From: Earliella scabrosa
Taxonomy: Eukaryota > Basidiomycota > Agaricomycetes > Polyporales > Polyporaceae
DNA: 64,000 bases
Direction of reading: 5' to 3'
Assembly (NCBI GenBank): GCA_022605405.1
Contig: JABYQQ010000006.1
Span: forward strand, 1,488,001-1,552,000
This document shows, one piece after another, positions 4,311 to 62,934 of this stretch (positions within the stretch are counted from its first letter, which is position 1; each line of letters begins with the position of its first letter). The notes beneath the pieces were generated by a model that saw only the letters and a list, made by a program, of their open reading frames with translations, was not told the DNA's origin and did not search any database. The position numbers were made by a program, and so were the translations under genes.

Positions 4311-5188
4311 CAGATCTATCACAAAGCGTCGAGGTTGTGAGTAGGGCGTATTTGCGTCTCGCTGTGCTCGCTGGATGAGCCCTGTCTTCCGTGCACGATT
4401 TTATACCGGTAGCGTTGAGTGCATGAGAAACTGGCATGTTCAACGGCATTCTGAGCGGGCTCACCCTGCTGTCTCCCGTCATGATACCACCTTACTTTGT
4501 GGCGTAAAATCTTCGGGGAGCGGTGCTGTTAAGTTTGCATTGAATGACGAATACAATGATGACGGAGGACGAACCTTATGATGGCGCCGAATAGCTCGTG
4601 GGGACGGGCGTCTGAGGTCGACCGTGGAACCTCGGGGAGGGAACTTACTCTTCGAATTGATGTATGCGCAGTGTTCAGAGATGGAGCATCCTTCAGGGTG
4701 AGGGCGCATGAGAGACATCGTCGTTGAGTACGGCATGGCTGATGGAGGGTGGCATATGAAGAGTGGAGGGTCCACATAATGTTCTCTACGAAGGAACTTG
4801 AGCGAAGGCTGCACGAAACAACGTTTTCTGGTCAGGCCAAGTATAGGAACGCATTACAAAGGCACTCACCCTGCGGCTTTCGGGAGCGTCTCTGTGTCTC
4901 CCCACCGATGCGGACCAGGAGCACATCACGCGATCCGAATGATCAGTTCGAACGATGGATAGATGTGGAAGATTGGAATCAAACAAAATACACAATCCGG
5001 CCCGTGATAGTATCATGAGCCTTCGGAAAAGGAACGAGTATGTGAGATAGCCCCGCGGCAGAAGCGGCTAGAGCATCAAGAAATGTTATCCAATACGTAT
5101 AGTAGTCCGTTGGAAGCACAGGGTATAGCCATAAGGTACCAGAGAAGTCAAAACAAACAAAGAAGTCCGTCAACTTCCCATAGCGGCA
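4311..5188. other. Intergenic region between two tandem paralogues
   Basis: Holds the promoter of the gene starting at 4310 and the 3' side of the gene ending at 5189. No coding signature, repeat or RNA gene was found. Confidence 0.5.
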
Positions 5189-6611: not shown

Positions 6612-7787
6612 CCTGGCGGTGATGACCCTGAGGCGAAGGCTCAATGTAGACTGCTCGGATGCAGAAGAATGAGAAGATATAAGCTAAACGAGACGCAGGT
6701 GCGCTGCGCAGGTAGACCAGCAATGCCTGACTCGCCTGACGACGATATTTCGCATATATCCAGCCTCAGACATACGATCATCAGTAATGTCGGCAATAGT
6801 CGACGGTCCCTGCATATAGAAGCGATGTGACTGTGTCAATGCGGTCGCAGAGCGGGTACAGATCTGCGGTTGACATAGCCCGGTGGCTTCTTAGATGGAA
6901 TAACGCTGGAATGTAGGGCTTTAGAATCTATCTAACAGACAAATGTCCATGTCAGTCATATGCGAGGGACAGATAGTCAGGTTGCTATGACTCACCGAGC
7001 ACTAAACCCGTCGCTCAAATGTTGAGACGATCACGGTCGCTCCTTACCTCGACATGAGAGCAGCCGCAGTTTCACTCTCACACATACAACTGCAACTCGA
7101 CCTGTCAGCCTCAAGTCATCTCCTAGTCGACGTGTGCGACAAGTCTACTGGAGTAACAAGCCGACCATGATGAATTAGTACGGGCGATTGATGTGCCAGT
7201 GTATGTCAGTGAATGTTGAACGAACGCAACTCACAATTGCCAGTTTGCGTGCGTGTTTCACATACGCTCATCACCACTACTAGCTCTGAACCAGCTCGTT
7301 GGTCTAAATTCATGTGTTCGAAAGGCTTGCTGGGCGTTTGGAAGAGCGATTGGTCGTCCTAACCTGTCCTAACGACGACCAGTGAGTTGTCTCCCCTAGG
7401 CAGACGATGGGACCTACTGAGGGGGGGATAGACGGTCCTTCAACCAGTGAGTTGATGTCAGATGAACAGTTCGAGCGCTTCCGAGCGCTCCGGGACGGTC
7501 CGGAGCGGATCTTGTCGGCAAAATGTCACTCAAACCACCACCACTTTGTCTGGACCTTGCAATAGTTCCTCTCCGTTGAAGCTACGATCCACATGCTCTT
7601 CCCTTACCGTGAAAACCAACATTAAATTCGCAGTGGCCCAGTAGTACCGGCGCACCACTGGCAGTGCGAATGGTCGCATTGTGCGGCGTTGTACGACCAA
7701 AGTAAAGTGGTCCCAACGCTTGCAAAGCCACAATGGGCAGGACAATGCGGCGCGGCGCGGATTATCAAAGCGGGGTGCCCTCGACAG
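6612..7787. other. Intergenic region; no gene seen
   Basis: Contains the presumed promoter of the membrane-protein gene starting at 6611. Between 7330 and 7510 there are short repeated words (ACCAGTGAGTTG near 7380 and 7445; GCGCTCCGG-type words near 7480). No coding signature. Confidence 0.45.
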
Positions 7788-20914: not shown

Positions 20915-22283
20915 TCAATCCGACGTTAGGTCGATGACTTCGCCTGGGTCGAAGGTCGGTCTCGCGCGAGGCTCCCGCTTGACGATCGGCTTCCGCTATA
21001 ATACCAATACCACACACGGTCAACCGGGTCTCAGGGAAACAACTCTGGATGCCACTCACATCCACGACCTCTTCGTCGTCGCTCAGCTCAATCACGTCCC
21101 CATCCGACTCGGTCCCCTGTTCCCGCTTGACCGATTTCCTCTCTCTCTTCACACGCGCAGGGCTCGTGCCGCTACTCCGACCGTCGGCCTCTCGCCCAGA
21201 CGCTATCGGCGCGCGAGTCTTCGTCTTCCTACGCGTACTCGGGCCCGCCTCCCCGTCTGCCGCAGCGTCATGCGCAGGCATGATACCTTGCGCCTGCAAG
21301 ATAGCTGCATGCGCCCAATATAAGAACGACCCATCCCCGTGAAGGATCGCGCACACGGATGAAGGCCACTCACCTGCAGGCCTATACCGGAACACGAACG
21401 TGACGAACGGGCCCGCCCGCTTGTCGATCGGCGTCGTATGCACCTTGTCGTGCCTCTTGGGGTATCGCTGTGGGCCACCCAACCTGTTCAATCATAACAG
21501 AATCGCACGCGAGCGTGAGCACAAGATGGACAGGGATGGCGGGGACTGAGAGAGTACGCACGCTACGCAGTGCGCGCCGGCCTTCTTGCTGCGCTCGTGC
21601 ACGCTCGACACGCCCGTGAATGCCTGGGGTTTGAACTTTGCTGTACGCACTTGCGGGCGGACGTGGACGACCTTGAGCTCGATCGTGCCGAGCTTCTCCG
21701 ACACGCCGCCTGACCAGAGCGTCTCGTCGTCGTCTGAGGAGCACAGACCGAGAGGCGTATGGGAGCGAGTGATACCGACGGAAATCAAGTGGTAGGGGCG
21801 AGGGTGTTTGGCAAAGCACTGAACTTTGAGGGAGAATGAAAGTTGACATAGGAGGTCAACGCACCGGTAGTCTGCAGCGCTGCAAACTGGAACGGTCTGT
21901 AGGTGCCCGGCGTGTCTGTCGACAATCCCAAACGCTTTCCCAATACGCCTGGATTACAGTGGGTCTTGCCCGCGGGGGTACCGTCGACCAATACCTTCAT
22001 GCTCGTGTGGTGGCCCGAAGCGCCATTGTGGTCCTTCCATTGAACGGAGAATTGCTACGAGAAGACCCCAGTTCAGCGACATGCGTCTGAGTCGCATACA
22101 GCAATGCAAGTGAAGTATACAGTATAGGATGGGATGGGTGTACGGAGATGTGCTTACCTTGCCGCTCTCGCTCGGGATATAGCATGTTATTGTCTTGCCG
22201 TCTCCATCCACCTGGATATCGTACTCTGGCAGTGGTTGTTGCTGGCTGTCCGCGATCCAGACCTCGTAGCCTCGGTGTAACAT
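20915..22283 (-). CDS. DUF7918 family protein with C-terminal SUMO-type motifs, 307 aa (copy 1, dispersed)
   Basis: Six exons: 22283-22158, 22054-21865, 21733-21562, 21483-21374, 21304-21060, 20995-20915. The DUF7918 domain fills the first four exons: YEVWI, LPEYDIQ, CYIPSESGK, QFSVQWKDH, VHERSKKAGAH and VFRYRPA. The tail (exons 5-6) begins ILQAQGIMP and is disordered, with basic and acidic patches. It has VKRE three times (two in exon 5; K287 in exon 6), DVIELSDDEE in exon 5 and VIDLTSD as the extreme C-terminus (301-307). VIDLT next to acidic residues is a classic SUMO-interacting motif and VKxE a SUMO-acceptor consensus; their use here is inferred. DUF7918 itself has no known function. This copy is 24 kb from the tandem array at 46.5-56 kb and in the opposite orientation. 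Confidence 0.88.
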
Positions 22284-38492: not shown

Positions 38493-41400
38493 ATGAAGTT
38501 TGCAAGGTAGGAGTGTCTGTTTTCAGCCTTCAGGAACCGCGCACTGATACGTTCCTGACATCACTGCTCTAGATATCTGGAAGAGACCCAGGTCTGTTTC
38601 ACCGGCTTGTCCTTGTTCTTGCAGTGACTCACTCGTTCTTTGTGCACAGACCCCCGAGTGGAAGAAAGCTTACATGTCAGTGTTGACCAGTGTTTGCATT
38701 TTTTTCCTGGCGTCATGAACGTGAGATCTCGAGAAACAAGCAACGATCAACTACGCCCATGGTCTGACCACTCGATGCGAATGCCATGGTTGCGTGGTGG
38801 CGTGTCTGTGCGCTGGTAGTTGCCGTGTCTACCCCGAGACGCGTTGAGCCGACACGGCATTCGCACGGTCTCGTTCGCGTCGAGAGGGTTCAAACGTTCA
38901 CGCCATAGACCCGATTGGGTGCGGGCGAGCAAAAGCTCATTGCTCATTTACTGAATTATTGCACGTCACATTTTACTGCTTGTTGCACCTCGCGAGGTCT
39001 TCCCCATCTTGCCCAGCGCAAGCGCGCCATTCTCGACTGGTCGCTCAGGATTTACTCACCGTGTAATACCACCAGTGATTATCGTGGATTGAAGAAGCGT
39101 ATAACTGCGATTCGTCGATCCCACCAAACGACTTCCTTGAGCAGCAGCGACGAAGACCTAGTCCTCTCCCCCACATCGCCCTTGAACAGGTCTAGCTTCA
39201 ATGAACTCGGCGTACACGACGCACCTCGTCCTTCCGTGGATTCCGCTTCCTCCGCCTCCGGTTCGGTCGACCACCTCCCGCCCCCCGAGAATGTAGGGGA
39301 AGGCTCAACCGCCCGCCAGCTCGAGCGCATTCAAGACCGCCCTTCCACTCTACAAGTTCTCGATGAACAGGAGGAGATTCAATCTGGTCCAGGAGCGCTG
39401 GAGAATCCAGAACGAGGAGCGTCTCCCGCGCACCCAACGCTCGCGGAACGACCCACCTCCGTAGAGGTCGTCTCGCCTCCACGCCCGCGCCGGGGTAGAT
39501 CCAATACCGTCACGACCGCGATCAGTCGCGCTCTGCATAAGGCGAACTCGACTAAGGGCACGGGTAGCGGTCCACTTGCTGGTCCTCGGTTTGACCTGCG
39601 TCGCCCACTACCGCTTATGGAGTTGCTGCCGCAGCTGACTCCTGTTGAGCGCGCGTTCTTCGACAAGCTCGACCAGGAGCTCGACAAGGTCGAAAGCTTC
39701 TATTGCGAACGTGAACGGGACATGCGGCACAGGTATGATCACCACAAGACCGTTTAGGTGCTGGCTAACTATGAACATCTCAGAGCGAACTTGTTGAAGG
39801 AGCAGCTTCAGGAACTCAAAGACCATAGACGTGCGTTCTATGTGAGTAGGAGACCATCACTTCTTGTAGTCGAATGTATGCTGATCTCTATGCTACTGAT
39901 AGGACGCACACCCGGCTGCTGCTATACCTTACAACTGGTTGCCTCTCCCGCTGCCGTCACCCATGATATCTAACATCCTCATCCACCGTCGCAAACTCCA
40001 CCACGGAACTTCACCCACCGTCACCCACCAACTTCCGTCGCCTCCCCCAAAGAGCCTGAAGTCCTGGACACGCTCCTCCAGTCACAAGAATATGACACAG
40101 CTTGACGGGGCCTCGACGAAGGATTTGGTGCAAGTAAAGTCGTCCGAGACCATCAAAGGGGCTACCGAGCCCAAGGCTGAGCAGGAAAATCCGAAGGCTG
40201 AGAATGCTGGCCCAGGTCGCTTGTCGCAGCGGTGGAGCATGAAGAATGTGCCGGGAATGCTAACCTTCAAACCGACACCTCCTGCGAGGAAAGGCAGCGA
40301 CTCTGATTCTGACGGCCAACACGAAGGAGGCGGCGAGGGGAGCGTCGGAACTGCGAACCCCACAAGCGGCCCTAGTGCGCCTGGTTCGCCGAAGAAGAGT
40401 CCGAAAGGGCCCAAGTACGATCCAGAGGAGTACCAGCATGCGAAGAAGCAGCTGAAAAAGGCGGTGTTGGAGTGCTATCGGTGAGTCTGCCGACGGGCAC
40501 CTTGCCATGCTCAGAAACTGACAGATTTTGTGTGCAGCGGTCTGGAGCTACTGAACAACTATAGAGTGCGTGAATACAAGCTGGGTATATGCGCATATAC
40601 TCAGCCACAGTGTCCATCCCACAGACTCTCAATCTCATCGGGTTCAGAAAAGCGCTCAAGAAGTTCGAGAAGGTCACGCACGTAAGTGGATAGTCGCCCA
40701 TTGCTCCTACTCTATCCAATCATTCTTCAGATACCCGCCCAACTCGCCTACACAAAGGAGAAGATCGAACCGAGCGCGTTCTCGTCTGGAGCGACCGTTG
40801 ACGCTCTTATCCATGACATGGAAGCACTGTTCGCTGCCCGTTTCGGTTCGTACCCTCGCTTATTATCCGAGCGCACGAGCCTCATAGTTCTCCCGTTCAG
40901 CTCGCGGTGACAAGAAGAAAGCCATGGCGCGCCTGCGCGGGGGTGCGAACCACACCAGCCATCACTTCAGCACGTTCCGCACGGGCATGGCGCTGGGCCT
41001 CGCCATCCCCGCTCTCGTCGCCGGTCTCTATCAGAGTTAGTCATAGGACGTCGATCCATAAGTTCTTCACGCTCACATCTTGCACTATAGGTTTCCGCGA
41101 AGAGACGCGAGAAGAAATCCCAGGCTGGGACGGCCTTATGTTCATATACGGCATATTCTTCGTACCCACGTTCTTCTCGCTCTTGGTCGGGGCGAACCTG
41201 CTGGTGTGGGCGCGGGCGCGCATCAACTATGTTTTCATTTTCGGTACGTGCTCCTACTTCCTCCGCGTATGTCTCTGTGTGCTGAACGACCCGTGCAGAA
41301 CTAGATTTACGTACAAGGATGGATTACCGTGTATACTTTGAGGTGGGTGCTCAGATGTAGATGGTCGAGTCTCCTGCTGAAGGGGTATTCCGTATGATCC

Positions 41401-46569: not shown

Positions 46570-47852
46570 ATGCATCACAAAGGATACGACGTCTGGGTGA
46601 CCTGCGATGGAGAGCAGTTACCGGAATACCAGACCAAGGTGGAGGGAGACCAGGGGAAGAACGTAGCGTGTTATATCCCGAGCGAGAGCGGCAAGGTATG
46701 TCCTCATCTATGTATGCTATTGCATCCGCCGCGCAGCTCTACGGGGACCGCGGTGTTAGCCTCCCCCTATACAATTGCACTCTGAACATCCTATGCAGAA
46801 CTTTGTTATCCACTGGCGAGACGGTGTTGGTCGCGACTGGCTGACCCTTACCTTCAAGCTCGACGGAAGTACTCTCGGGCACAGCAGCCTGTGTGTTGCA
46901 GGCCAGAGTGGAAAACGAGCCGGCGTTCTGACCTCTGCAGATATTGAGCAGCCATTCGAGTTTGCAAATCTCCACACAACCGGTACGGCTCATGTAGTAG
47001 ATTCTCACCATCATCTACTGACGGTTCTCAAGATGACGATTCGTTGTTGACCGGTTTGTCGAACAATAATGAACTGGGCACAATCGAAGTCAGCGTCCGA
47101 AGAGTACGCAGCGAGTACACCCTAGTGCCATACTATCCCGGCGGGTTCAACCCCGTCGGTTCCGTGCACGAGCGTAGCAAGAAAGCAGGTGCCCATAGTG
47201 TTTCGTACGTGCCGCTGACACGCCTTCGCGGGGCTTAGCTCACATATGTATGTCTTAGGCTGGGGAAAGGGACCAAGATCTCTGGCCAACCCTGCCAGTA
47301 TCTCGAGAGGCATGCAGCGGTCGACCCTCTCGAGGGCTATGTTGCTGTGTTTGTATTCCGTTACCGACCCCGGGGTGGGTGCAGCTTTCCGACATACCAC
47401 CCTTTCGCCGATCTGACAGCCGATCAGCTCTGCTGCAAGCCCAGGGGATCATCCCTTCGTCTCCTTCGGCGTCCTATTCCCAGGCGGGCTCGTCGCAGGC
47501 CGTGAAGAAGGAGAAGAAGCGCGTGAATAGCTCAGCAGATGGACCAGCTGCCAAACGGCCGAAGGTCGAGCCCGGCGCGGAGAAGGTGGATCTTGGTGTG
47601 ATTGACATCTCCGACGATGACGAGAATCTGGATGTACTTCAGGTAAGTCATGCAATACATGTCTGCCTACGCACGATGACTGAATAGGCCGGGTAGAGTC
47701 GACTACGACGTCTGCAGAATCAAGTCGACCGAGCGAAGAGGAAGAAGGGCGAGTCCGCAAATGGTGGACGCGTGAAGAAGGAACCCGGAATGTCCGCCAA
47801 TGCCGCCCTCGCAGAGTCGGGAGATGTCATCGACTTGACCCTGGACGATTGA
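46570..47852 (+). CDS. DUF7918 family protein with C-terminal SUMO-type motifs, 315 aa (copy 2, array member 1)
   Basis: Six exons: 46570-46695, 46799-46982, 47033-47204, 47259-47374, 47428-47642, 47718-47852. Domain blocks: YDVWVTCDG, LPEYQTKVEG, CYIPSESGK, FVIHWRDGV, VGSVHERSKKAGAHSV, VFVFRYRPR. The tail begins ALLQAQGIIP, has a basic KKEKKR patch and a VKKE consensus, then GVIDISDDDENLD in exon 5. Exon 6 carries VKKEPG and ends VIDLTLDD (V308-D315). Exon 1 is 126 nt in this and the other three intact copies. Nuclear location is suggested by the Lys/Arg clusters; function is unknown. First of four genes in one orientation (46.5-56.1 kb). Confidence 0.88.
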
Positions 47853-48238
47853 CTTGTGTAGCTCCGAGCTTTCCGACCTCAGGCTTGTTCTCTGGAGGTA
47901 TCTTATACATCGTATTATTCGCCATACTGTACTGTAATTTGGTGGAGTCAGTCCTTTTGTAATACGATATGTTCATGTAGTAGCCTGGGAGCCTCGTCGA
48001 AAAGCAAACCCCACGGCGTACGAGTATGTAACGTTAACGCTGCTAGTGGCCTCCAGTGAGCGTTTACACGTCGCGTGTAGGACGCGTCCCGGCCCGGGGA
48101 TGGCTTGTTTTCCTACCACGATCATCCTTTGTCCACAGAAATCGTATACAGGTTGCTCCCGTTGCTGCCTCATCCACACCACGCCTAGGCTTGCCTGCTT
48201 GTCTCTTTCAAAGCCCAATATCGACCCTTATCTCAGTC
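47853..48238. other. Intergenic spacer within the DUF7918 array
   Basis: 3' flank of array member 1 and promoter of member 2. Nothing else recognised. Confidence 0.5.
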
Positions 48239-49594
48239 ATGCAACTCAAAGGCTACGAGGTGCAAGTCACTTGCGACAACAGGCCTTTGCCCGAGTACAA
48301 TGTCCAGCTGGAAGGAGACGATGGCAAGACCGTCGCGTGCTATATACCCAGCGAGTGTGGCAAGGTACGCTTCCCTTTCCTCTTTGTCCCGACAGCCTCG
48401 TGGCGAAGCCTCCAGATGCTGAGGGTAAGCGGACACATGTAGACGTTTGCTATCGAATGGCGCGATCATGTCAAGCAGACGCACCTCCGCTTCGTGACGA
48501 AGATCGACGGGCGGGATGCTGGTGGCAACCGGTGTCCTCCAGGAGGGAGGGGATACCGGTCGGGTGTCCGCACGAACCCGACCACCCGACAGTCGTTCCA
48601 GTTCGCGAACTTACAGACTACTGGTGCGTGCCCGAACGCCCCTTGCGGCATGAAGTGAGATTGAGCCACTCATTATCACTGTATCTTTGCTCCCGACGCA
48701 CAGACGAGGATGATGCGCTAGGGATGCCTAGCTACGCAAATCTAGGCGAGATCGTGGTGTGCGTGTCCCGCATACGCGCCGAGTGCAGGTCCGTCCCGCA
48801 CTCGTGGGGAAAGTTCAAGCCTATGGGCGCCGTGCACGAGCGGAGCAAGAAGGCGGGTGTGCATTGTGTAGAGTACGTTCCCCTTCCTTCCTCGACTCTA
48901 CTATATGCGAGCCGACATGATTGTTCAGGCTAGGGGAAGCACGGAGAGTGCCTACGAAGCGCATACAGACAATGAGCACGCCGCTGGACCCTCGGGAAGG
49001 AGATGTCGCGAAGTTCATCTTCCGATATAGACCTCTGGGTACGTTGCTCAAGTTCCCAAGTGTGTGGTGCGTCCGGTGCGTTCACGCCTCTAATGATCGC
49101 GTGCAGCGCTCCTGCAAGCCCAGGGCATTGTTCCCCATGAGTCCAAGCCTGTCCCGTCTGACAGAACGATCAAGCGACGCGCGTCTGAGGCTCCTGTCGC
49201 TGGCCCAAGTTCGCAGCGTATCACGTCCAAGCGTTCACGACGATATATGGAAGCCGACGACGAACAGGACGTCAAGCCGAATATCATCGACGCTGACCTC
49301 GACGACCCGGACTCAGGGGAAGATATAGAAGTACTAGAGGTTAGCTTCTCATACTCCGACGTCGAGGGGCTGGATCTGACACGCACTTAGAACAAGCTCA
49401 AGAAGATTCGCCGGCTGCAAGACAAGGTGGAGCGTGTGATCAAACGGCGGAAGAGTGAAGGCGGCTCGCAGCTCTCTGCTACACCTCAACCGACGCAAGT
49501 CTCTGTAAAGCAGGAAGAGGGCGGGGCTTCAAGCTCACGACGACGACACTCAGAGCCGGTCGTGATAGACCTGACGCTGAGTGATTCAGATTGA
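48239..49594 (+). CDS. DUF7918 family protein with C-terminal SUMO-type motifs, 340 aa (copy 3, array member 2)
   Basis: Six exons: 48239-48364, 48443-48623, 48704-48872, 48929-49038, 49107-49339, 49391-49594. Domain blocks: YEVQVTCDNRPLPEYNVQLE, CYIPSECGK, FAIEWRDHV, VHERSKKAGVHCVE, FIFRYRPLG. The tail starts ALLQAQGIVP and contains a bipartite basic stretch (SKRSRR), then a weaker hydrophobic/acidic patch (NIIDADLDDPDSGED) in exon 5. Exon 6 opens with NKLKKIRRLQDKVERVIKRR, likely a short basic coiled coil, then VKQEEG and the terminal VVIDLTLSDSD (to residue 340). It keeps the same exon phases as copies 1, 2 and 4. Confidence 0.88.
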
Positions 49595-51959
49595 CATTGA
49601 TAACAGGGCGCCATGGTGTCGGCGGTGGGCACCGTACGTCTGGTGACCACTGCCGTCTTCGCGCGGCGGTTACTCATCACAAACAGACGATACCTGAACT
49701 AGTGGCACGCGGATAGGTGTATTTTTGAGTGTGCTATGTTATTGCACTATCCTAATATATGCGCGTTGCGCGCACTACCTGTACAGCAGGGATCCGTCCC
49801 ATGACGGTCTGCGCCAGTGACGATGCGATGCCCTCCATGCAACCTTGGCGGAGCATGCGTCGGCTTCTATATATCTTGTGAGAGGGCGTGTGCGAACGGT
49901 TCAACGAGACTGACTCGGTTTTCCTCGCTCCTCTGACCAGTGGCCGTCCGCAGGTCTACGTTGTACCTGAGGTTCGATGTGATGTGAGTACAAGTCGATG
50001 GAATGAGTGCGAGAACCACGTACACTTGGGAGGCATAACCTGTCGGCTTCCGACCATTGGTGGCTCGAGTTGCGCGTCTTGCGCAGCCTCACCTACGCTG
50101 AGTATATGTGTTGGAGATCCCGTCTGTAGGCGAAGTAATGAAGCGGAATCATACTGCGCGGCGAGTTGTCAGTGATCGCGATACACAGTCTGACAATCTC
50201 ATGATGATGGCTCACCGAGAGAACAATGCATGAGCGGGACTCCCGGACAATGATTTGAGAGAGCGGACGTGTTCGGACGCGGCGCGAAAGGGAAGAGGGG
50301 ACCTCTGCTGGGCGGGAGCAGGTGGTACTGATGTCCGAGTCCTGAGCAAGCTCAGTCCTCACTGAAGGAGTAGGAGGATCCAGAGTCGAGGTGGGAGTCG
50401 TGGTGGTCTCGCCGTACGCTGAGGTAGTGCTGAGGGGACGGGGGCGGAGGGGACGGGGAGCACCCGGCTCACTCGTGTGTGGCCACGCCGTCCTTCTTGC
50501 GTGGCCACACCGTCCTTCTTGCATGGCCACACCGTCCTTCTTGCGTAAGAAGGGCTTGTCGGCCGAGTGATAGTCGCAGCTGCGACTCACCACCGTGGGG
50601 GAATCTCATAGGCATGTGCCACATGAGCTGGTCGAGTTTGCCGGTTGTCCTCCCGTCCTCCGTCCGGTATTTGTTCTCCTGCTGGCTCCGCGTTTGCCAT
50701 GCTCACGGGAGGCACGCCGGAAGGGCGGTCCTGACTGCACCACATGAGCTGTGGTTAGAAGCGGGCGCATCGTAGAGGCGGGCTAAGGAGTGTACTCACC
50801 ACATGAGTAGTGTAGTGGTAGCTTATCGGCCTCGCACGAGGAGATTCGAGGGTGTCGGTCATTGGATGACCGACCGACAGAGCATGCAGGAGTTCGAGAT
50901 GTGGACTGAAATGAGATTCGAGCTGAGAGCGAGTGACACGGAGGGAGCTGGGGGTAGGATGCAGTAGTGAGGGGAGGATGGTGGATTGGGGGCCTTACTT
51001 ATATGTTTTCGGGGGCTCCACCGTGAGGACGGACAAACAATGGGCTCCTTCGATGCCGCAAGGGGGCGTTGAAAGCACTGCCCTCGGCTACCAGGTCCGA
51101 CCAACTCCTCCGGTCATAGCGTCGCGCAGGGGCAAGTAAGTCATTGTAAGAGCGTGCATCCGATGAAAAGCGCTGTCCATCTCTGTGTTAGCAAGTTGGT
51201 GAAGGACCTTGAGGGACTATATGCAACTACCGTGACGCACCGTTGGACTCGGATAGACATCGAATGAAATTCGCGGCGCATCCCCACACTCAAAGCGGTC
51301 CGGCGAACTGTCCGGTTTTCCTCAGATTCGGTCCGCTTTTGAAGCCACTACAAGGATGGTTGCCAGCTGGAGTTGCATAAAGTAGGGGTAGTACGGTAAG
51401 CATTGAATTGACTCGAATGTGACGTGGAATGCCGCGAGGAACGCTCCGCATTGTTGGTCTGCTTTGCGAAGAGCAAGACATAGCTGAATAGTCTAGACCC
51501 TCCGCGTTCCAGCCTTACTGTCGATCTCTGGAGCTGCTAGATCTGGAGTCTTCGGAGTGTATAGATCTCAGCAAGTGGCAGGAAGTATTAGATAAGTGCA
51601 TGTCGGATTTAGATCAATGCACCTCATATAATACGTCCGAGAGCCTTGCGTCCAGGCCGCATTCAGCAATTGGAGGCATGCAGCGGAGAAGGGTGGTCCA
51701 TGGGCCATGGCCGCCGACGTTACAAGACAGTTCGAAGGCTTGGTCGGAGTCGCCGGCGCTCCTATTGAACTGTATAGAGATCTCGATTACCAGGAGTCTC
51801 GGGTCGGCTATTCCCGAGGGTCGCTTCCCCATCCAAACGCGCTTCCGACCTCAACTCAAACCTAACAGTGGCACGACGAAGTGTAAGTATACACACCAAG
51901 AAGTCGCCGGGCCTCTCAACAAATATAGAAACAGCACAAATTCAACGTATTAACGCCCC
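49595..51959. other. Long spacer within the DUF7918 array
   Basis: 2.4 kb without a supported gene. It contains the 22-bp tandem repeat at 50479-50544 and a tRNA-like A-box/B-box pair near 50808-50850 that does not fold (see rejected items). A minus-strand frame at 50093-50593 spans the tandem repeat but has no signature. Confidence 0.5.
50479..50544. repeat. 22-bp tandem repeat, three copies
   Basis: Units at 50479-50500, 50501-50522 and 50523-50544, consensus GTGGCCACACCGTCCTTCTT plus GC; each unit differs from the consensus at one base or fewer. Each contains the palindrome TGGCCA. Confidence 0.85.
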
Positions 51960-53355
51960 ATGCAGCTGCACCAATGCGAAGTTTGGCTCACCTGCGATGG
52001 CCAGCCGTTGTCAGAGTATAGCACGCAGCTAGGAGGTGACGACGAGAAGACGATATCTTGCTTCATTCCCAGCCAAACCGGCAAGGCGAGCTCTCTCCTT
52101 GTCTATTTATTCTATTCCGTACTCATTACCTTGCTGTAGACATTTGCGGTGCATTATGACAATCAACTGGATGACCACGTCCGCTGTAGCCTGCGAATGG
52201 ATGGGTTCTTCCTGGGTTCAAGCGAAGTTCGCTCCGGATCAGAAAGGCGCAAGGACGCATACCGGAGCACTCCCAATACTGAGTCTCCCTTCCAATTTGC
52301 AACACTCGTAACTACAGGTATGGTCATTGTCGCGCTTACGCCACAGTGTCACTATCCTCGAGAAGTCATCCTTCTCACGATGACTACCGTGCAGATGACG
52401 ACGAGGCAACCTTTCTTCAGGATGTGACAAACATTGGAGAAATCCGAGTCACCGTCCATCGTATTCATCGAGTCAAATTGACAAAGCGCGAGATCCAGCA
52501 GCGGGAGAAGAACTTGAAGCGCAACGGCAACCGTCGTGATGTCAACGCTTACAAGGAGTTCCCTGGAACGGGTCCTGTGCACGAAAGCTCGAAGAAGGCT
52601 GGAGCGCATTGCATTACGTATGTTTAACCTTGATCCGTTTCAAAGACGATCGTCCACCCATACAATCCTGCTACAGCTTGGGCGAGGCTCGGCCAGTGAA
52701 GGCATCGAGAAGCACCAAACCTTCGACAACCAAGACCAGAGTCATAAACCCCGCCGAAGGGCCACACGCGGTCTTTGTCTTTCACTACAGACCACTCGGT
52801 AGGTCCCGCTCCCCGATCTTCCGTGCCCGGACCTCTCGCTTACAGTACAAATCGGTGTATGTATGCACTCGTGCGCAGCCCACCTCCAAGCGCAGGGGAT
52901 TGCACCACTACCTCTACGAGAGTCGCACTTCCGTTCTTCAGGTCCATCCGAAGTCATTGAAATCGACTTGAACTCTGACGACGAAGACCCTGCCACCGGC
53001 GGGAGATCGGGACCGAGAAAGCGCGCCCGCATCGCATCCCAAGATGATGCACCCGACGTCAAGCCAGTGAAGCCCACCCGCTCCGATGAGGAAGAGGATG
53101 TTAGCGTGTTGAGGGTGAGTACTACGTAGCGGAATATCTCTCGTTACAAGTTGATATCATGATGTCTGACCCTACTGTGGATCTCTTCTGTAGAGTCAAC
53201 TGCAACAGATCAAAGACAAGCTCAGTCGCATTGAGAAGAACTCAAGGGACCCATCGGGGTCACGCCCGGGAATGGTGAAGGAGGAGCCAGGCGCGTCGGG
53301 GCAGATGAGGTCCGGAGGCGGTGTTATTGATCTGACGCTGAGTGACGAGGACTGA
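51960..53355 (+). CDS. DUF7918 family protein with C-terminal SUMO-type motifs, 348 aa (copy 4, array member 3)
   Basis: Six exons: 51960-52085, 52140-52317, 52395-52617, 52677-52798, 52879-53114, 53194-53355. Domain blocks: CEVWLTCDG, LSEYSTQLGG, CFIPSQTGK, FAVHYDNQ, VHESSKKAGAHCIT, VFVFHYRPLG. Exon 3 is about 50 nt longer than in the sisters through a Lys/Arg/Asn-rich insert (KREIQQREKNLKRNGNRR). The tail starts HLQAQGIAP, with EVIEIDLNSDDED in exon 5 and, in exon 6, SQLQQIKDKLSRIEKN (coiled-coil-like), VKEEPG and terminal VIDLTLSDED (V339-D348). The first intron has a GC donor (AAG|GCGAGC) at 52086, a rare but accepted GC-AG type; no nearby GT donor preserves the frame. Confidence 0.86.
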
Positions 53356-53516
53356 GCACGTCGTACCGACCCATTCTCAACCGCGACTCATAGATTGACC
53401 TTCTTGGACAGGCTAGTAGCCACATATGCATTCATACCATCGTTAACAGTCCTTCCTACTATACGAACGTTGCTAATCGTAATACCAACCTGCAAACAAC
53501 ACTCTCAAGATGCCTG

Positions 53517-54215
53517 CTAGTGCTCGCACATGTTGAACTCCAGTTCGTACATGGTTTCGTTATGCTGCATCACAAACTTTGAACGCTCCTTCATAAGCTC
53601 GGCCCGATCTTCTTCCGCCTGCTCGCGCGAAATGGCGCCTTCCTTCACGTACCCTGCAACCATGTCGAACAGCTCCTGCGGGAGCTGCCCCAGCGCCGGC
53701 GTCCGCTCGAGCTCGTCCACCATCCACTCCTCCTGCGGCGGCGGGACGTCCGTCGTCGACAAGATCCTATGCTCGGGATTGACCAAGAAGAAGCACAAAA
53801 TTTTCCGGTGGCCGGGCTTGGACGGGTCCGCGAGCTCGAACGGATCGACGTGGTGCTGATACGAGTTCGGGAACGCGACGCACTTGTCCTCCTCCGCGAC
53901 GATGTGTCCGAGCTGCTGGCTGAGCGCGTGGTCGCGACCGAACCCGTACGCAACGACGTACCCGCGGTAGTCGTTCTGCTCGTACCGCAGGTCCAGCGGC
54001 GCGTCCGACGTGCCGACGAAGGTGCGGAACGCAAGGCGCGACTCGGAGATGTTCTCGCACGTGTAGTAGTAGAGCCCCGTCGCGACGATCGCCTCGTTTG
54101 CCATGCCCTCGACGTGCCACGAGCCGCCCGGGTAGCGCGGCTTGTCGGGCGTGAGATGGATGTTTGCGAGCTTGACGATGACTTGGGGCGTGCGGTGGTG
54201 GGTTCCTCCTGTCAT
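53517..54215 (-). pseudogene. 5'-truncated DUF4246 copy (C-terminal half only, 232 codons)
   Basis: An uninterrupted frame that aligns nearly residue for residue with residues about 400-617 of the full gene at 61016-62934, from VIVKLANIHLTPDKP to the same FNMCEH end. Upstream it keeps the promoter block of the full gene and a TATA box, but the rest of the 5' UTR, all of exon 1, the intron and the first part of exon 2 are absent. The first 11 codons correspond to 5' UTR sequence of the full gene (GACAGGAGGAACCC). So an internal deletion fused promoter to C-terminus. The TATA box is only 15 bp before the ATG, so a normal start site would fall inside the frame. The putative catalytic residues of the C-half are all kept, so selection may have lasted for a time. 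Lies between array members 3 and 4, opposite strand. Confidence 0.75.
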
Positions 54216-54230
54216 CTTGGCGCGCCAGTA

Positions 54231-54385
54231 CTTATACAGTACTGGCCTCAGGCTGATGTGCCACGAGCCCCGACGTCGGATGGTCCGCCTCGATGTTGCT
54301 TGGTGCTTGCGTCCCGTTCCCAGAATACCCGCGCCCCGCCGCCCGACGCTTACCCGATATGGGCATTATATCCGCCACATGACTA
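54231..54385 (-). promoter_or_regulatory. Promoter block shared with the full-length DUF4246 gene
   Basis: Read on the minus strand this region carries GCGTCGGGCGGCGGGG, then an ATCGAGGCGGACC-type word and a GTATAAGTACTG TATA box (54231-54236). The same words in the same order stand upstream of the gene at 61016 (60727-60890). Similarity is high for non-coding DNA, which indicates a recent duplication or conserved regulation. Confidence 0.7.
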
Positions 54386-54666
54386 CCAAGAGTTGTCAGA
54401 GTATGGCTCGCAGCCAGAAGACAGACGTCAAGAAGACGAATGATCTGTGACCCTGTTGCCTCGTAGTGGAGTCAACCACAGCAGACTCGGATGCCAGAAC
54501 GGTCGGCCCGTGAGCCACGTGGCTGTTCCTCTCTGTAGCGCTGAATGGCTCATCTTGAACTTGGCCTCAACTTTCGAGACGCTCGCTACAAGTTCGCGAG
54601 CTCGACTCGGTCGCTGTGATACTCGCTCCGTCGACAACCTTCTAGAGAGGTTGCACGGGTACTGCC

Positions 54667-56136
54667 ATGCGAGTGGGGCAATGCGAAGCATGGGTCACAT
54701 GCGACGGCCAGCGGTTGCCCGAGTACTGCACAAAGCTGGAGGAACTCCCCTGGACGGGAAGCCCACTGAGACCATCGCATGTTTCATTCCCAGCGAGGCC
54801 GGAAAGGTGCGTAGTCCATCGCAAATTCTGCTTCTATAGGCAAAGTCTGACGAACCCCAAAATATGTATGTCCTTCAGAACTTCGCTTTGCACCACGGCA
54901 ACGAGTTAACCGGCGGGCGAGACGTCTACCTCCGTTGTGAAGTCTCGATGGACGGCGCCCCCACGACCTCGATATACTCGCCAATGGGGCATGAGTGGTG
55001 CAGGGACGGACAGCGTATAGACCCCACGACCAGGCTGGCCTTCCAGTTTGCACCGCTGGAGACTACGGGTGCGTTCAGTGGGGGCTTGTTTTGCGGCCTG
55101 GCAAAACTTTGACCAGGCTGTATACTGTGTTTGCGACAGACGACGACGACGCAACGTTAACGAAGGAGCGGGACGTCTCGGACCTTGGCACCATCAAGAT
55201 TCGCTGTGTCCGCGTCCGCCAAGTAAAGTTACCGTTCACGCAGCCCAAGCCCCAACGGTACGGCCGGTTCCGCGAAGTGGGTCCTGTCCACGAACGCTCC
55301 AAAAGGCGGGGGCGCATCGGATCTCGTATGTGCTCACTGCTCGTGTGTCTGCGCTCGCTATAGACGTGAGTGTCTGATACACATTCTCCCCAGGCTGGGA
55401 GAGCCGGTCCAGCGGCGTTCAAGCCACCGGTGAGCGCAAGGTACGACCCTATCGACCCCAGCGAAGGTGCTATCGCAGTCTTCGTCTTCCGGTACAGACC
55501 GCTGGGTGCGTCCGCCCTCCGCTGTCATGCACCTGCGGTCGATTCACCCAAGCACGCCATCGTTCCATGTTACATACTTGTATGCGCGGACCGTTGAACA
55601 GCACTACTCCAAGCACAAGACATCGCGCCGCTCCCTCCTCGAGCCTCTGCGTCTCAATCATCCGATTCATCCCAAGCGGGACCGTCGCAAGCCAGACCGT
55701 GGACTGCCAGCCCAGCCGTTGATGTCGTCGATGTGGATTCCGACAGCGACACCGTGACTACATCGAAGGGCGCGCGACCGGGGAAACGACCGCGCTTGAC
55801 CTCGGAGCAGGATGGAGACGTCAAGCCTGTGAAGGTCGAGCAGCCTTCCTCCGATGACGAGGAGGAGGAGGATGTGGGCGCGATCAAGGTCCGTCGTGCA
55901 CGTCCCGATCGGATGTTCTCGCGTACTAGGCTGATACGAGCCACCCCAACTCCCGGTTCGCTTTCCTGTCACGGTAGACACAGCTCCAGCTGCTCCAGCA
56001 ACGGCTCGAGCGGATCGAGAAGAAGAAAGGGAAGAAAAGGGTGAGGGTGAAGAAGGAGGAACCGCGCTCGTCCCCGCCGCTGCGAGGTAGCGGAGGCGGG
56101 GTTATGATCGACCTGACGTTGAGCGACGACGACTGA
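54667..56136 (+). pseudogene. DUF7918 gene with three frameshifts (copy 5, array member 4)
   Basis: All six family exons are recognisable with intact splice sites: 54667-54806, 54879-55068, 55140-55325, 55394-55505, 55602-55888, 55978-56136. Exons 1, 3 and 4 each have a length one base short (modulo 3) of what all four sister genes keep, so the frame shifts inside each: after CTKLE in exon 1, at VHERSK in exon 3, and after GEPVQR in exon 4. Exon 2 and the tail exons 5-6 remain open, including VKVE, VDVVDVDSDSD, VKKEEP and the terminal VMIDLTLSDDD. Either a recent pseudogene or three deletion errors in the assembly. No protein is assembled across the shifts. Confidence 0.75.
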
Positions 56137-58134
56137 GTTCTGAATCTGATGGAGACTATGTACTCGTCGGGACTCGGAGTATGTGTGGGCATTTCTTGGA
56201 AGGCAGGATCGGCACCGACAGCTGGTCACTTGGTGAATCATCTATTGGTGAATGCTGCTGGCTACCGTTGTGCTGACATTATTTGAACGTATGGTAGTAT
56301 ATGAGATTGTCGTGTACCTACGCGAGTAAAGTCAGTGAACGAGACCAAAGAACGTCGACCGGTAAAACGCACCGTTGCGGGTCCGCCGGCCATCCTCGGT
56401 CACAGCTAACGGCCAGGGGCACTATGTATCATGATCCACAATGGTCGCCTACTGCAAACTAGTCGCCCTGGGCGTGGAGGTGAAACCGCCCGTGCTGATC
56501 TGCGGTAAGGGCCGACCGAGACGCCGTCAACATTGACAGCACGTTTTGGCAATGCGACGCCAGCGTTGATGTCATTGCAGTGACATGATGTGTGCGGGCG
56601 TTCCAGTCGCCTTGCGCGTCGCGCGATGCACTTTGCACAGTCGTGACTCGTCTCGCGCTCGTCGCTCACAGGAGGACACGAATGCTGTGGTGGTTCTCCT
56701 GCCCAGCTGCAGCGTGCGCACCGAGAACGCCGCTGTCATCGCACCGGTTCAAGGCACGGAGTCACAGTCGCTTCAGGCCCGGCGCATCTGGGTGGCACGG
56801 ACTTTCGGCCATGCGGGTATTTGCGTGATTTTCCAACAGAGGATACGACAGATCTAGAGTCCTGTCGTATTCGCGGTGGAAGTGTATGCGTCTTTGCGCT
56901 CGTCATTGTAACCATAAGTAGCTTGTTGCGGGTTCAATACAAACGAGTGGGCACCCGGGAGGACACGTGATCGCGGGGGTTACGATGCTCGGCCTCGAGA
57001 GAACTCCGTCCGGTGCAGAAGAAGTTGATGACAGAAGCATCGATATCTGACATCGGCACCATCGTCCACGCTGTGACGGGGTGGAGCTCTGGCAGTGGAC
57101 AAGGTTCTTTCAGGTTTGTGGCAACGACCAGAGGGTATATATGTGGCTACTTACAGTACGAATTCACTATAGCTACAAACCTCCCCCCTCTTGCAATTGC
57201 CAGTGTCAACCTCGAGTCCGCTATCCTCTGTTAGGCTTTGTTTCGAAAACCCATCCGCCCTGAAAGTGGAGCACTGGTGGAGCTCGATGCTGATTCGTTA
57301 TACATACACATTGCGGACCTTGATGACTCGCATATCAATCAGGACCAGGACATCATTCGTGCTCGTCGTGGAACATGTGGGTGAGCAGGCCAAGACGGGG
57401 AGAGGACCTCCTTTCGCGCCAGTCAATGTGGACGAGCCGGGACTTACTGCGAGACATAAAGTGAGTTTGTTCACTGGATGGTGACTGTTCTGTACTTGGA
57501 GGTCGCTGAATGCGGTGGTCGACGCGCTGAACAGCGGTGATTTTGATTCGATCTAGCATCCGCCGGCTATGACGGAACAGGGGAGGACGTTGATTGGCTG
57601 GAAAGGAGCGCTGCGATCCGGATCTGACGTGGGGCGGCCAACCGAGGACGGGCGCCTGGGGGGCCTGGACCAGGGCGTTGATTTGGAGGGCGGAGGTGCC
57701 TGGCAGAGGGTGGCAGAGGGAGAGGACGTCTTGGTCCGGTTCCGCGCGATGTCGCCCTTGCTTTCTGCCTCTGCCAGCGTCCGTGTCCATGTCCTGCTCG
57801 CCCAACGCCTCTCCCGCCTGACAAAACGCGTCCCCTGCGCCTCGTGAGTCTCCTTCTGCTCTACTCAACGCCCGCGGGGACCTACTCGCCTCCGAGCTCG
57901 GTCTCGCGGTCTAGATCGCGCTCGTGCGTCTGCTCACTGCTCGTGTTCCGATTGAAATTCAGGAAGCATCGCCCGCTCTCCCAGCGTCCCATCCATCTAA
58001 GAACCTCGACCCCTCCCGCCCACATCTTTTCCCCAGCGGTTCTCCTCCTGCTCCCCGCATCTGTCGCTCCTTTCATCCTCACGCTCATTCTTTGACGACT
58101 CCCCTTCCATTCTCTCCCGCTCCCCCGCCGTCAA
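56137..58134. other. Intergenic region of 2 kb; no supported gene
   Basis: Overlapping frames at 57353-57868 exist on both strands without a signature. The last 300 bp before 58135 are C/T-rich, as is usual before a fungal start codon. Confidence 0.5.
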
Positions 58135-59889
58135 ATGTTCACGCCGCCCCCTTCGCCCGATCCTCGACGTCCGCAGCGAACCGCGCCCGCATCCTCGGCC
58201 ATTTCATCAGACTCGTCCCTCAAGCTTGATGTCGCCGACGATCTTTTCCTGAGCCCCTCCGCAGGCAGCTCTAGAAGCACCTCCCCGGACTCGCACACTC
58301 CGCAGGCGCACGACACCCCGCTCTCGCCCAAGGAGGATCCGTACACATATGCAGTCTTGCAGAAGAAACGGTCCGCGCGGCGCACACGGTGGACAGTGGT
58401 ACTTGTTCCTCTCGTCCTAGTCCTCGTCGCCCTCTCCACGCGATATCTCGCACATCCCGCTGCGTTTGACATCCTCGCCTCGCGTGCGCCAAATTGGTCT
58501 GCCGCGAAGGATTGGACTCCACATAAACGGCATGCTGAGCCGGACCCTGCACCCCAAACTCCAGAGGCAACGACGGTGGACAGCGGAAAACCGACGGACA
58601 CCAGCCTGTCTCTCAACCCCACCGCGACCTCGCTCCCAACGTCCGTCAGTGGGGGAGACACCACGGTGCCATGGGTAGCCCCCGTCCTCCCCACGCCCTT
58701 CCCCCAACCCTTCGACTCGACCTTCTCGCCAAATTTCTCGACCGTCAGCTGTCAAGACTTCATGACCAACATGACACTCTCGCCAAACTTCCGTAGATGT
58801 CGGCCGTTCTCGCTGCTCGTGGGCGACTCGAACGCATTCATCACTGTGAGTCCATTCGCTCTCCCATTGGTATGCTCGTGACCTTGGCTCGTGTACCGTT
58901 CTTCGTACTTCGTGTGTTTCCGACTCGGACCGCGGACTGTGCACTTGTTTCTTGGTGGGGAGAGCTGGAGAGCGCAGGGTCTGCTGGCACCCGGGTCAAC
59001 CTTGTTCGACCCGAAGCCCGATGACTGGCTTTCGTTCCGTTTCACACAGCCGTCATCACGATCCCTCCTGGCATCTGTCGAACAGGCGAACAGGGATCGG
59101 GCCCTGCGGCTCCCCGGCTCTCCCGCGGGGGTACCTTTGGGTTGACGGATTGATGCAGCGCGAGACGTCGGTGTGCTAACATTCGCGCTGCGTCTGATCG
59201 AAGCAGAGCCAGCGGAACGCATCCCTCCTGAACGTGATCATCTGGGGGACGTGCAACACGGAGGAGAGCGCGGAGACGTGCGCGTCGAACATGGCGTGGT
59301 TCTCGGAGAACATACAGAGCGCGTGCGCGCAGGACATCGCGGACCAGAACGCGCTCGTGAGCGATGCCGTCGCAGGTAAGCCCCGCCCCCCTCACACACC
59401 GCTTGATACGCCGGACCACACATCATGTATCGCGTTCTCACACATCTCTTGCCCCCGCGCTCCGCGCACGCACACACAGGTCTGCAATCGTACAGCCTCA
59501 TGCGCTCAATCGCATGCCAGGTGAACGCAAAGACGAACACGTACTGCTACGTCGAGGCCGCCACGTCGACGCACCCCTCGGACCTGTACCTCTACCAGCT
59601 CCCGCTCGGGCTCGCCCTGCCCAACACGACCGTGCCGAGCTGCACGCCGTGCGTGCAGAGCGTGATGGGCGCGTACGCAGATGACGGGATGGCGCTCGCG
59701 AAGCTCCAGGACACGTACCCGCCCGCGGCGAGCATCGTGAATGGCGCGTGCGGGAGCGAGTTTGTCGCGACGGTGGCGCCGCAGGAGACGGGTGGTGCCG
59801 CGGCGTTGTTGCGTGGGTCGGGGTGGGCGGGGGCGTGGGTGTGGGCGGTCGGGGTGGCGCTGCTTGTTGGGCAGGCGATGGTGCTGTGA
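58135..59889 (+). CDS. DUF7729-type membrane/GPI-linked protein, 429 aa
   Basis: Three exons: 58135-58845, 59207-59375, 59480-59889. A cytosolic Ser/Pro-rich head (residues 1-80) precedes a membrane anchor (WTVVLVPLVLVLVALS) and a Thr/Pro-rich stalk. The conserved domain follows, with CQDFMTNMTLSPNFRRCRPF, LNVIIWGTCNT, ACQVNAKTNTYCYVEA and SCTPCVQSVMGAYA; about ten Cys suggest disulphides on the extracellular side. The C-terminus is a hydrophobic stretch (GWAGAWVWAVGVALLVGQAM) that may be a GPI signal or a second span. The domain is known from fungi as DUF7729, with no assigned function. The first intron is 361 bp, longer than usual. A type II cell-wall-facing protein is the likely topology (inference). 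Confidence 0.82.
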
Positions 59890-61015: not shown

Positions 61016-62934
61016 ATGACGCACAAAGGCCTCCGGCAGGACAAGCCGCGCAAGGCGGGCGACTTCCCCTCGCCGTTCGACTGGGGCGCGCGCGAGCCGA
61101 TCACCCTTGTCGAGCTGCGCATGCGCCAGCTCTCGGGGCGCGTCCGCGCGAAACCGAATTGGTGGGAGAAGGTGCACGATGAGGCGATTGTGCGAAAGTG
61201 GAGGGCGGAGATCGTCGAGAGGGATAGGGAGGTTGTTGAGAAGCTGTGGGGTGGGGAGGAGCGGTTTGAGGAGGAGGTTAGGGAGAGGGACGAGGATGAC
61301 GAGGATGACGAGGACGGGGAGGGAGCGGAGGGAGCGGAGGGAGAGGGAGGGGGAAGGGCGCGAGGGAATAACCACGATGAAGAGCGTCCGCTTGGGCCGA
61401 AGAAGTGGCCGCGCGACCCCATTACGGAGGCGCAGCTCGACTACATCTTTGCGGAGCTGAGGCACGCGGCGAGCGAGCGCGACCCGGAGACGGGCATCTT
61501 TGTGGGTCTTCTCTCGCTCCATGAAGCTAGCTCGTGATATTGACTCTCGTCGGTGGTTAAATCCAGGCAACTGCCGTCCGCAAGGTCTACGAGTCGCGAT
61601 CTCTGATCCCTCAGACCCTCAAGGACGACATCATCAAAGGGGTCTCTGTCCTGGAGAACGTGCCCGAGGACCAGAAGGACTGGCACCCCGGCACCGACGG
61701 GCAGGTCCTCGACCTCGTCCACCCCTCGCTCTACTGTCTGCGCATCGGCGGCTCCTTCGTACGGAAGCAGGATACGACCGGCGACTCCACCCAGTCCTCC
61801 GTCGAGGTTATTACCGAGGAAGAGTACCTCGCCAGGCGGCCTGACCTCAAGGGGTACGCCAGGTGGCGCAAATGGCTGATCTCGCCCAAGTTCCAGTGGC
61901 TGCCCACCGACTTCCAGGTGTCAGCCTCGGGCGCGGTCAGCTGCCTCGGGTACATCAACAACCTCCACCCCAAGAAGCACGCGTCCCTCTACCCTACCAT
62001 CACGTCCGTCCTCGAACGCTTCGTCCCGATGTTCGAGCGCGTCCTCTCCGATGCCCTCTCCGCGGAGCCCGAGCTGGCAGTAGAAGTGGACCCATACAGC
62101 TGGTACGACGGTCTTCCCGAGCAGCCCGACTGGGACTACGACGAAAACGAGGCGTACGAGAAGTGGGAGCGCGAGGAGCACTGGCCCAAAATCCCCGACC
62201 CCGCGCCCTTCCAGCCCCAGCCCGCGGAGGAGCGCGTGAGCTACTCGCTCAAAGGGCGCACCCTCCAAGTCATCGTCAAGCTCGCGAACATCCACCTCAC
62301 GCCCGACAAGCCGCGCTACCCCGGCGGCTCGTGGCACGTTGAGGGGATGGCGAACGAGGCGATCGTCGCGACGGGGCTCTACTACTACGCGTGCGAGAAC
62401 ATCTCCGAGTCGCGCCTCGCGTTCCGCACCGTCGTCGGCACGTCGGACGCGACGCTCGACCTCCCGTACGAGCAGAGCGACCACCGCGGGTACGTCGTCG
62501 CGTACGGGTTCGGCCGCGACCACGAGCTCAACCAGCAGCTCGGGCACGTCGTCGCCGAAGAGGACAAGTGCGTCGCGTTCCCGAACTCGTATCAGCACCA
62601 CGTCGACCCGTTCGAGCTTGCGGACCCGTCCAAGCCTGGCCACCGCAAGATTTTGTGCTTCTTCTTGGTCAATCCCGAGCATCGAATTTTGTCGACGACG
62701 GACGTCCCGCCGCAGCAGGAGGAGTGGATGGTGGACGAGCTCGAGCGGACGCCGGCGCTGGGGCAGCTGCCGCAGGAGCTGTTCGACATGGTTGCGGGGT
62801 ACGTGAGGGAGGGCGCCATTTCGCGCAAGCAGGCGGAAGAGGATCGGGAGGAGCTCATGCAGGAACGCTCGAAGTTCGTCGTGAAGCACAACGAGAACAT
62901 ATACGAGGTCGAGTTCAACATGTGCGAGCACTAG
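61016..62934 (+). CDS. DUF4246 family protein, full length, 617 aa
   Basis: Two exons: 61016-61501 and 61567-62934. Conserved blocks: FPSPFDWG, ITLVELRMRQLSG, PNWWEKVHDEAIV, AVRKVYESRSLIP, DLVHPSLYCLRIG, SPKFQWLPTDFQV, YINNLHP, then VIVKLANIHLTPDKPRYPGG, SWHVEGM, CVAFPNSYQHHVDPFEL and GHRKILCFFLVNP. DUF4246 is common in basidiomycetes with no proven activity. H419-x-E421, the downstream H506/H507 and R522 are spaced as in Fe(II)/2-oxoglutarate oxygenases; that reading is inference. Exon 1 has a Glu/Asp/Gly low-complexity insert (EDDEDDEDGEGAEGAEGEGG) that the tandem copy at 63389 lacks. The TATA box is at 60875. A truncated copy lies at 53517-54215. Confidence 0.9.

What the first reader, a model, noticed from the sequence alone, without database searches (positions are those of the whole stretch)
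46570..56136. DUF7918 genes all end in a SUMO-site plus SUMO-interacting-motif module
Seen directly: the last exon of all five copies (20915-22283, 46570-47852, 48239-49594, 51960-53355, 54667-56136) contains a VKxE tetrapeptide (VKRE, VKKE, VKQE, VKEE, VKKE) and then ends VIDLTSD, VIDLTLDD, VIDLTLSDSD, VIDLTLSDED or MIDLTLSDDD. Exon 5 of each holds a second hydrophobic/acidic patch (VIELSDDEE, VIDISDDDE, IIDADLDD, VIEIDLNSDDED, VVDVDSDSD). Known: VIDLT-like cores followed by acidic/Ser residues bind SUMO, and a hydrophobic residue-K-x-E is the Ubc9 acceptor consensus. Inference: the family is a SUMO-pathway scaffold or substrate whose folded DUF7918 domain varies while the SUMO module is kept. 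I know of no description linking DUF7918 to SUMO.
Basis: partly seen in the sequence, partly recalled or inferred. Interest (0 to 1): 0.9.

Follow-up and report, generated by a model that had tools for sequence, protein, structure and literature searches.

The report
Mushroom protein family with SUMO-binding tails
A family of mushroom proteins of unknown function, present here as a few neighbouring gene copies, ends in a short tail that looks like both an attachment site and a docking site for the protein tag SUMO, and that tail has been kept better over evolution than most of the rest of the protein.

Summary
All five DUF7918 copies (Earliella scabrosa) end in VKxE then VIDLT/MIDLT; copy E is frame-broken in exons 1 and 3. 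I found 146 homologues. Of the 134 with at least 230 aa, 105 have a C-terminal SIM and a PsiKxE site, 7 the SIM alone, 11 the site alone, 11 neither. Domain-only searching gives a terminal VIDLT-like core in 40 of 65; shuffled tails at most 1. In 97 rows that I selected, the acceptor lysine is invariant; mean pairwise identity is 0.89 for VIDLT, 0.70 for VKxE, 0.34 for the domain, 0.17 between the motifs. Sporobolomyces, another subphylum, keeps the layout with a different SIM, EVLVLSDSD/E. A SIM plus SUMO-acceptor tail is the best reading; binding and modification are untested. The exon-5 second SIM is not a family feature (17 of 111). Extensions: an unrelated tandem array in the same genome has VIDLT ends in 8 of at least 15 copies, and the DUF7918 fold matches uncharacterised proteins of large DNA viruses. 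No paper in the held library names DUF7918.

The parts
20915..22283 (-). DUF7918 gene copy A, 6 exons (22158-22283, 21865-22054, 21562-21733, 21374-21483, 21060-21304, 20915-20995)
   Evidence: P0037
20957..20983 (-). copy A VKREP... predicted SUMO acceptor site
20918..20938 (-). copy A C-terminal VIDLTSD predicted SIM
21069..21095 (-). copy A exon-5 VIELSDDEE patch (second SIM-like)
46570..47852 (+). DUF7918 gene copy B, 6 exons (46570-46695, 46799-46982, 47033-47204, 47259-47374, 47428-47642, 47697-47852)
47772..47789 (+). copy B VKKEP predicted SUMO acceptor site
47826..47849 (+). copy B C-terminal VIDLTLDD predicted SIM
47598..47624 (+). copy B exon-5 VIDISDDDE patch
48239..49594 (+). DUF7918 gene copy C, 6 exons (48239-48364, 48443-48623, 48704-48872, 48929-49038, 49107-49339, 49391-49594); identical to deposited P0001
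49505..49525 (+). copy C VKQE predicted SUMO acceptor site (K313, same in 97 of 97 selected rows)
49562..49591 (+). copy C C-terminal VIDLTLSDSD predicted SIM
49283..49306 (+). copy C exon-5 IIDADLDD patch
49391..49438 (+). start of exon 6 of copy C, encoding part of the predicted helix (residues 269-296) before the module
51960..53355 (+). DUF7918 gene copy D, 6 exons (51960-52085, 52140-52317, 52395-52617, 52677-52798, 52879-53114, 53194-53355)
53275..53292 (+). copy D VKEEP predicted SUMO acceptor site
53323..53352 (+). copy D C-terminal VIDLTLSDED predicted SIM
52953..52988 (+). copy D exon-5 VIEIDLNSDDED patch
54667..56136 (+). DUF7918 copy E, six exon-like blocks, frame broken in exons 1 and 3 (pseudogene or sequencing error); exons 5 and 6 open
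56047..56064 (+). copy E VKKEE site
56104..56133 (+). copy E C-terminal MIDLTLSDDD
55724..55750 (+). copy E exon-5 VVDVDSDSD patch

Best explanation
DUF7918 proteins of Basidiomycota are, most likely, nuclear adaptor proteins that plug a diverging beta-sandwich domain into the SUMO system through a conserved C-terminal tail. The tail has a lysine in a PsiKxE site, which Ubc9 would modify, and usually 11-18 residues later a SUMO-interacting motif of the PIAS type (VIDLT) at or within a few residues of the C-terminus. A short helix precedes it in both members that were modelled. Proposed mechanism: the SIM holds donor SUMO on SUMO~Ubc9 and promotes modification of the nearby lysine in cis; the same SIM and the attached SUMO then tie the protein to other sumoylated or SIM-bearing nuclear proteins. 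Shown here: the anatomy, its conservation and its persistence while other sequence diverges. Inferred from known SIM biology: SUMO binding, sumoylation, the cis effect, nuclear site and adaptor role.
For: Motifs far above shuffles in two homologue sets, one found with the folded domain alone. Over 97 selected rows: K313 in 97 of 97, E315 98%, V331-T335 92-97%; mean pairwise identity VIDLT 0.89, PsiKxE 0.70, domain 0.34, between the motifs 0.17. After [VI]K in the last 60 residues, +2 is E in 132 of 171 cases. K-to-VIDLT spacing is 11-18 in 82 of 99. Sporobolomyces (Pucciniomycotina) keeps a leucine-rich stretch, VKLE/IKME and a terminal SIM of different sequence, EVLVLSDSD/E. On the tree, the 12 tail-less of 118 rows lie among tail-bearing rows (9 changes). 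In the two models the tail has low confidence and no secondary structure, while the domain has block pLDDT 81-98. Published: the VIDLT core of PIAS1 is a tight SUMO binder (PMC3901395 and PMC4907222, passages); SIMs raise sumoylation in cis for TDG, DAXX, USP25, BLM and Srs2 (PMC12751080, section 29 read).
Against: No binding or modification data were found or made here. 11 of 134 homologues lack both motifs and 11 keep only PsiKxE, including six of eight named Suillus rows. In the domain-only set 10 of 65 lack both and 11 keep only PsiKxE. For the 97-row alignment I had dropped 49 of 146 rows, among them P0038, P0105 and P0116, which keep VIDLT but lack the acceptor consensus. Six of its seven invariant columns lie in the domain, so the tail is not uniquely conserved. 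45 of 101 tails end exactly at T without acidic residues after the core, though E or D precedes it in 81 of 108. The second SIM is not general. The contig-7 array has VIDLT with KRRKT and no PsiKxE in the residues shown, so the two motifs are separable.
Confidence: 0.68

Rival explanations
1. The VIDLT end is a free-carboxylate recognition tag for some other reader (C-degron reader, unknown C-terminal receptor) and is SIM-like only by chance of sequence.
For: 45 of 101 tails end exactly at T. In the unrelated contig-7 array 6 of the 8 VIDLT tails read also end exactly at T. Such end-anchoring is typical of C-terminal tags.
Against: The other 56 of 101 carry 1-8 further residues. Sporobolomyces replaces it by VLVLSDSD/E, which keeps SIM chemistry but not the sequence. 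Variants keep hydrophobics at most SIM positions; HIDLT and TIDLT, one each, do not at the first.
Confidence: 0.15
2. The VKxE stretch is mainly a nuclear localisation signal, not a SUMO acceptor.
For: Basic residues often precede it (R or K at -1 in 48 of 107), and the contig-7 array has an NLS-like KRRKT at the matching place.
Against: Only 16 of 107 match K[KR]xK. The glutamate, which an NLS does not need, is present in 98% of 97 selected rows. Tails average 1.55 [VI]KxE sites against 0.09 in shuffles.
Confidence: 0.12
3. Ordinary: conserved tail of recent paralogues, or a selection artefact of searching with the tail.
For: The first search used the whole protein, and its hits carry the core more often (101 of 113) than the domain-only set (40 of 65). 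Row selection for the 97-row alignment dropped 49 of 146.
Against: The domain-only search still gives 40 of 65, against at most 1 in shuffles. Domain identity averages 0.34 and the stretches of tail outside the motifs and the terminal acid run 0.16-0.25, so relatedness alone does not explain 0.89.
Confidence: 0.05

Closest known systems
PIAS1 SIM (VIDLT) and other VIDLT-core SIMs
   Same: Identical five-residue core; acidic or serine residues after it in many members
   Different: PIAS1 is a SUMO ligase with an SP-RING (recalled); Pfam finds only DUF7918 in copies A-D. Here the core sits at or near the C-terminus.
Substrates with SIM-dependent sumoylation in cis (TDG, DAXX, USP25, BLM, Srs2)
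   Same: SIM and acceptor lysine in one protein (PMC12751080 section 29); here 11-18 residues apart in 82 of 99
   Different: No sequence relation was tested; modification of DUF7918 is untested.
DUF7918 (Pfam PF25534)
   Same: Copies A-D score 81.6-93.8 bits, cut-off 27
   Different: The Pfam match ends at residue 206-226 of copies A-D; the tail is not part of the model.
Uncharacterised proteins of large eukaryotic DNA viruses in BFVD
   Same: Foldseek E down to 1.5e-12 and 5.2e-10 with two different DUF7918 models; 21 of the 24 hits at E<=0.001 of the second are among the 31 of the first
   Different: 7-17% identity and many high rmsd values; no sequence-level viral relative found; the tail was not compared.

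Membership tests
DUF7918 (PF25534) | profile score over Pfam's cut-off | tested here: met
   copies A-D 81.6-93.8 bits, cut-off 27; copy E not scanned
SUMO-interacting motif | hydrophobic hhXh or hXhh core, flanking acid or serine, exposed | tested here: met
   VIDLT plus E/D/S in A-D and MIDLT in E; in the two models the tail lacks secondary structure at low confidence; consensus from PMC8616421, passages
SUMO-interacting motif | binds SUMO non-covalently | not testable with these tools
   no complex prediction or assay available
SUMO substrate | PsiKxE consensus in accessible sequence | tested here: met
   all five copies; [VILMFA]KxE in the last 60 residues in 116 of 134 homologues
SUMO substrate | covalent modification by SUMO | not testable with these tools
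   needs an assay
SUMO E3 ligase (SP-RING) or STUbL (RING) | SP-RING or RING domain | tested here: not met
   Pfam scan of copies A-D shows DUF7918 only at E<=0.001

The most novel reading that the evidence does not exclude
Mushrooms use a portable C-terminal SUMO tag (VIDLT at or near the carboxyl end, with a PsiKxE site or an NLS-like run before it) on separate, tandemly expanded gene families whose N-terminal domains diverge. These would form a repertoire of nuclear recognisers wired to SUMO bodies. The DUF7918 domain shares its fold with proteins of large DNA viruses, so it may have passed between such viruses and fungi, and the repertoire may act against invading DNA.
Probability: 0.12. 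Interest if true: 0.88.

Novelty: new variant of a known kind. Interest (0 to 1): 0.6.

Why it matters
It turns a domain of unknown function, found here in many Agaricomycetes and in Sporobolomyces, into a directly testable SUMO-pathway family: a peptide pull-down and an in vitro sumoylation assay would settle it. If the same tag really serves several expanded families, the SUMO system of mushrooms has a large uncharted client set. The fold link to large DNA viruses gives an entry to a fold for which no confident solved match was found.
Full report
What is there. The window lies in a 51.7 Mb genome in 48 contigs. Copy C is identical over 340 aa to a protein deposited for Earliella scabrosa (P0001; Polyporales), which names the fungus. 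Five DUF7918 copies are present, one alone at 20.9-22.3 kb on the minus strand and four head-to-tail at 46.6-56.1 kb. I placed six exon blocks in each by hand. Copies A-D are open and score 81.6-93.8 bits for PF25534. Copy E breaks frame in exons 1 and 3. Three further copies lie on contig 13. One ends VKREASPICVPAAFSGEVIDLT and one VKREASPIIVIGEDPDDIIDLTVDDP. The third carries many [VI]KxE sites, and I saw no VIDLT in the stretch read.

The motifs. Search with copy C gave 116 homologues. Search with an alignment of the folded domain only, which cannot favour the tail, gave 75, of which 30 were new; a third search added none. Of the 146 proteins, 12 under 230 aa were left out. Of the remaining 134, 105 have a C-terminal SIM and a PsiKxE, 7 SIM only, 11 PsiKxE only and 11 neither. 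In the domain-only set alone the figures are 41, 3, 11 and 10 of 65. By the narrower VIDLT pattern, of 134, 107 have the core, 116 PsiKxE and 100 both. Several tail-less rows look like cut gene models by eye. Six of eight named Suillus rows keep PsiKxE but lack VIDLT; the other two keep both.

More than chance. In 300 shuffles of each tail no run had more than one VIDLT-like core in the last 15 residues, against 101 of 113 and 40 of 65 observed. In an alignment of 97 rows that I selected (49 of 146 dropped: 12 short ones and 37 others, among them tail-less rows and three with VIDLT but without the acceptor consensus), the lysine of PsiKxE is one of seven invariant columns; the other six lie in the domain. 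Mean pairwise identity is 0.89 for VIDLT and 0.70 for PsiKxE. It is 0.34 for the domain, 0.25 for the linker, 0.22 for the helix, 0.17 for the stretch between the two motifs and 0.47 for the acid residues after VIDLT, which only a third of cells fill. A second alignment of 69 rows, 66 of them also in the first, led by a protein that groups with Amanita on the tree, again shows that lysine invariant; it is not independent. On a quick-method tree of 118 domain sequences (16 of the 134 left out because my landmark motif was not found, among them six with wholly different tails), the 12 tail-less rows are scattered and need 9 changes (shuffled mean 11.6). The tail was therefore probably ancestral to this set and lost or cut several times.

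Why SUMO. VIDLT is the core of the PIAS1 SIM, described as one of the tightest (PMC3901395 and PMC4907222, passages seen). Nearly all DUF7918 variants stay within the SIM consensus (consensus from PMC8616421, passages). Most telling, three Sporobolomyces proteins, from Pucciniomycotina, have the domain, a leucine-rich stretch, VKLE or IKME and then EVLVLSDSD or EVLVLSDSE at the C-terminus, and two of them also IIVISDDEDE or VIVISDDEDE. This is SIM chemistry without the VIDLT letters. At +2 of [VI]K the glutamate is kept (132 of 171), which a nuclear signal alone would not need. SIMs raise sumoylation of their own protein in TDG, DAXX, USP25, BLM and Srs2 (PMC12751080, section 29 read). That is my proposed mechanism, by inference.

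Limits. No binding or modification was or could be tested. The exon-5 patch is present in the window copies but rare in the family by a strict pattern (17 of 111). Eleven of 134 homologues lack both motifs. No ascomycete relative was reached.

Beyond the finding. Of 67 places in the genome matching the degenerate VIDLT pattern (reversed-pattern control 34), all 67 were read as bare frames: 4 in the window, 23 and 40. Seven encode VIDFT. In 20, a stop follows within six residues. Five of these 20 are DUF7918 copies and eight belong to one tandem array on contig 7; their tails read KRRKT, a few residues, then VIDLT (six) or VIDLTSD (two). These eight were found by the VIDLT pattern itself. The array has at least 15 copies of one exon, so the tail is shown for 8 of at least 15 and the other ends were not read. 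The contig-7 stretches fetched have no tblastn match to DUF7918, and the open frames scanned have no Pfam match over cut-off. The two families thus supply 13 of 20 C-terminal VIDLT places.

Structure. AlphaFold2 gives a mostly confident domain of about 205 residues, a helix and an unstructured, low-confidence tail in two different family members. No confident PDB match was found. Against viral models, 31 and 24 proteins match at E<=0.001, with 21 shared; the named ones are mainly from giant viruses, iridoviruses, an ascovirus, baculoviruses, nudiviruses and an abalone herpesvirus, with one labelled marine phage. Two of the 31 are annotated as RING-type proteins; neither recurs in the 50 rows shown for the second model. 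Identity is 7-17% and many rmsd values are high, so this suggests a shared fold, not a function or a direction of descent.

Verdict. The SUMO reading is well supported by conservation, unproven biochemically and, as far as the held library shows, not in print for DUF7918.

Noticed in passing
L033-L038 (own genome contig 7, about 1.00-1.13 Mb): Tandem array of an unnamed family (at least 15 copies of one exon); eight tails found by the VIDLT pattern read KRRKT, a few residues, then VIDLT or VIDLTSD; no match to DUF7918, no Pfam match over cut-off.
   Followed up: partly
   Followed up: partly
window 54667-56136: Copy E is frame-broken in exons 1 and 3 while its tail exons stay open.
   Followed up: partly
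window 53517-54365 (minus) and 61561-62934 (plus): DUF4246 sequences; the first matches only profile positions 238-400 of 401 and lies between DUF7918 copies D and E.
   Followed up: no
window 38909-39757 (plus) and 58096-58881 (plus): Open frames matching SPX and DUF7729.
   Followed up: no
L031 about 4750-7019 (minus): Contig-13 DUF7918 copy whose downstream sequence holds many VKxE/IKxE repeats (e.g. IKREPSVKRE, IKKEPDVRVKTEP) and no VIDLT in the stretch read.
   Followed up: partly
20-row clade that holds P0043, P0047 and P0065 (Trametes and relatives): Acceptor site often followed by SP (VKREVSPI, VKREPSPI; over the family, SP within four residues in 24 of 104), close to but one residue shorter than the phosphorylation-dependent sumoylation motif as I recall it.
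   Followed up: no
window 50473-50546: Three copies, 22 bases apart, of a GTGGCCACACCGTCCTTCTTGC-like unit between copies C and D.
   Followed up: no
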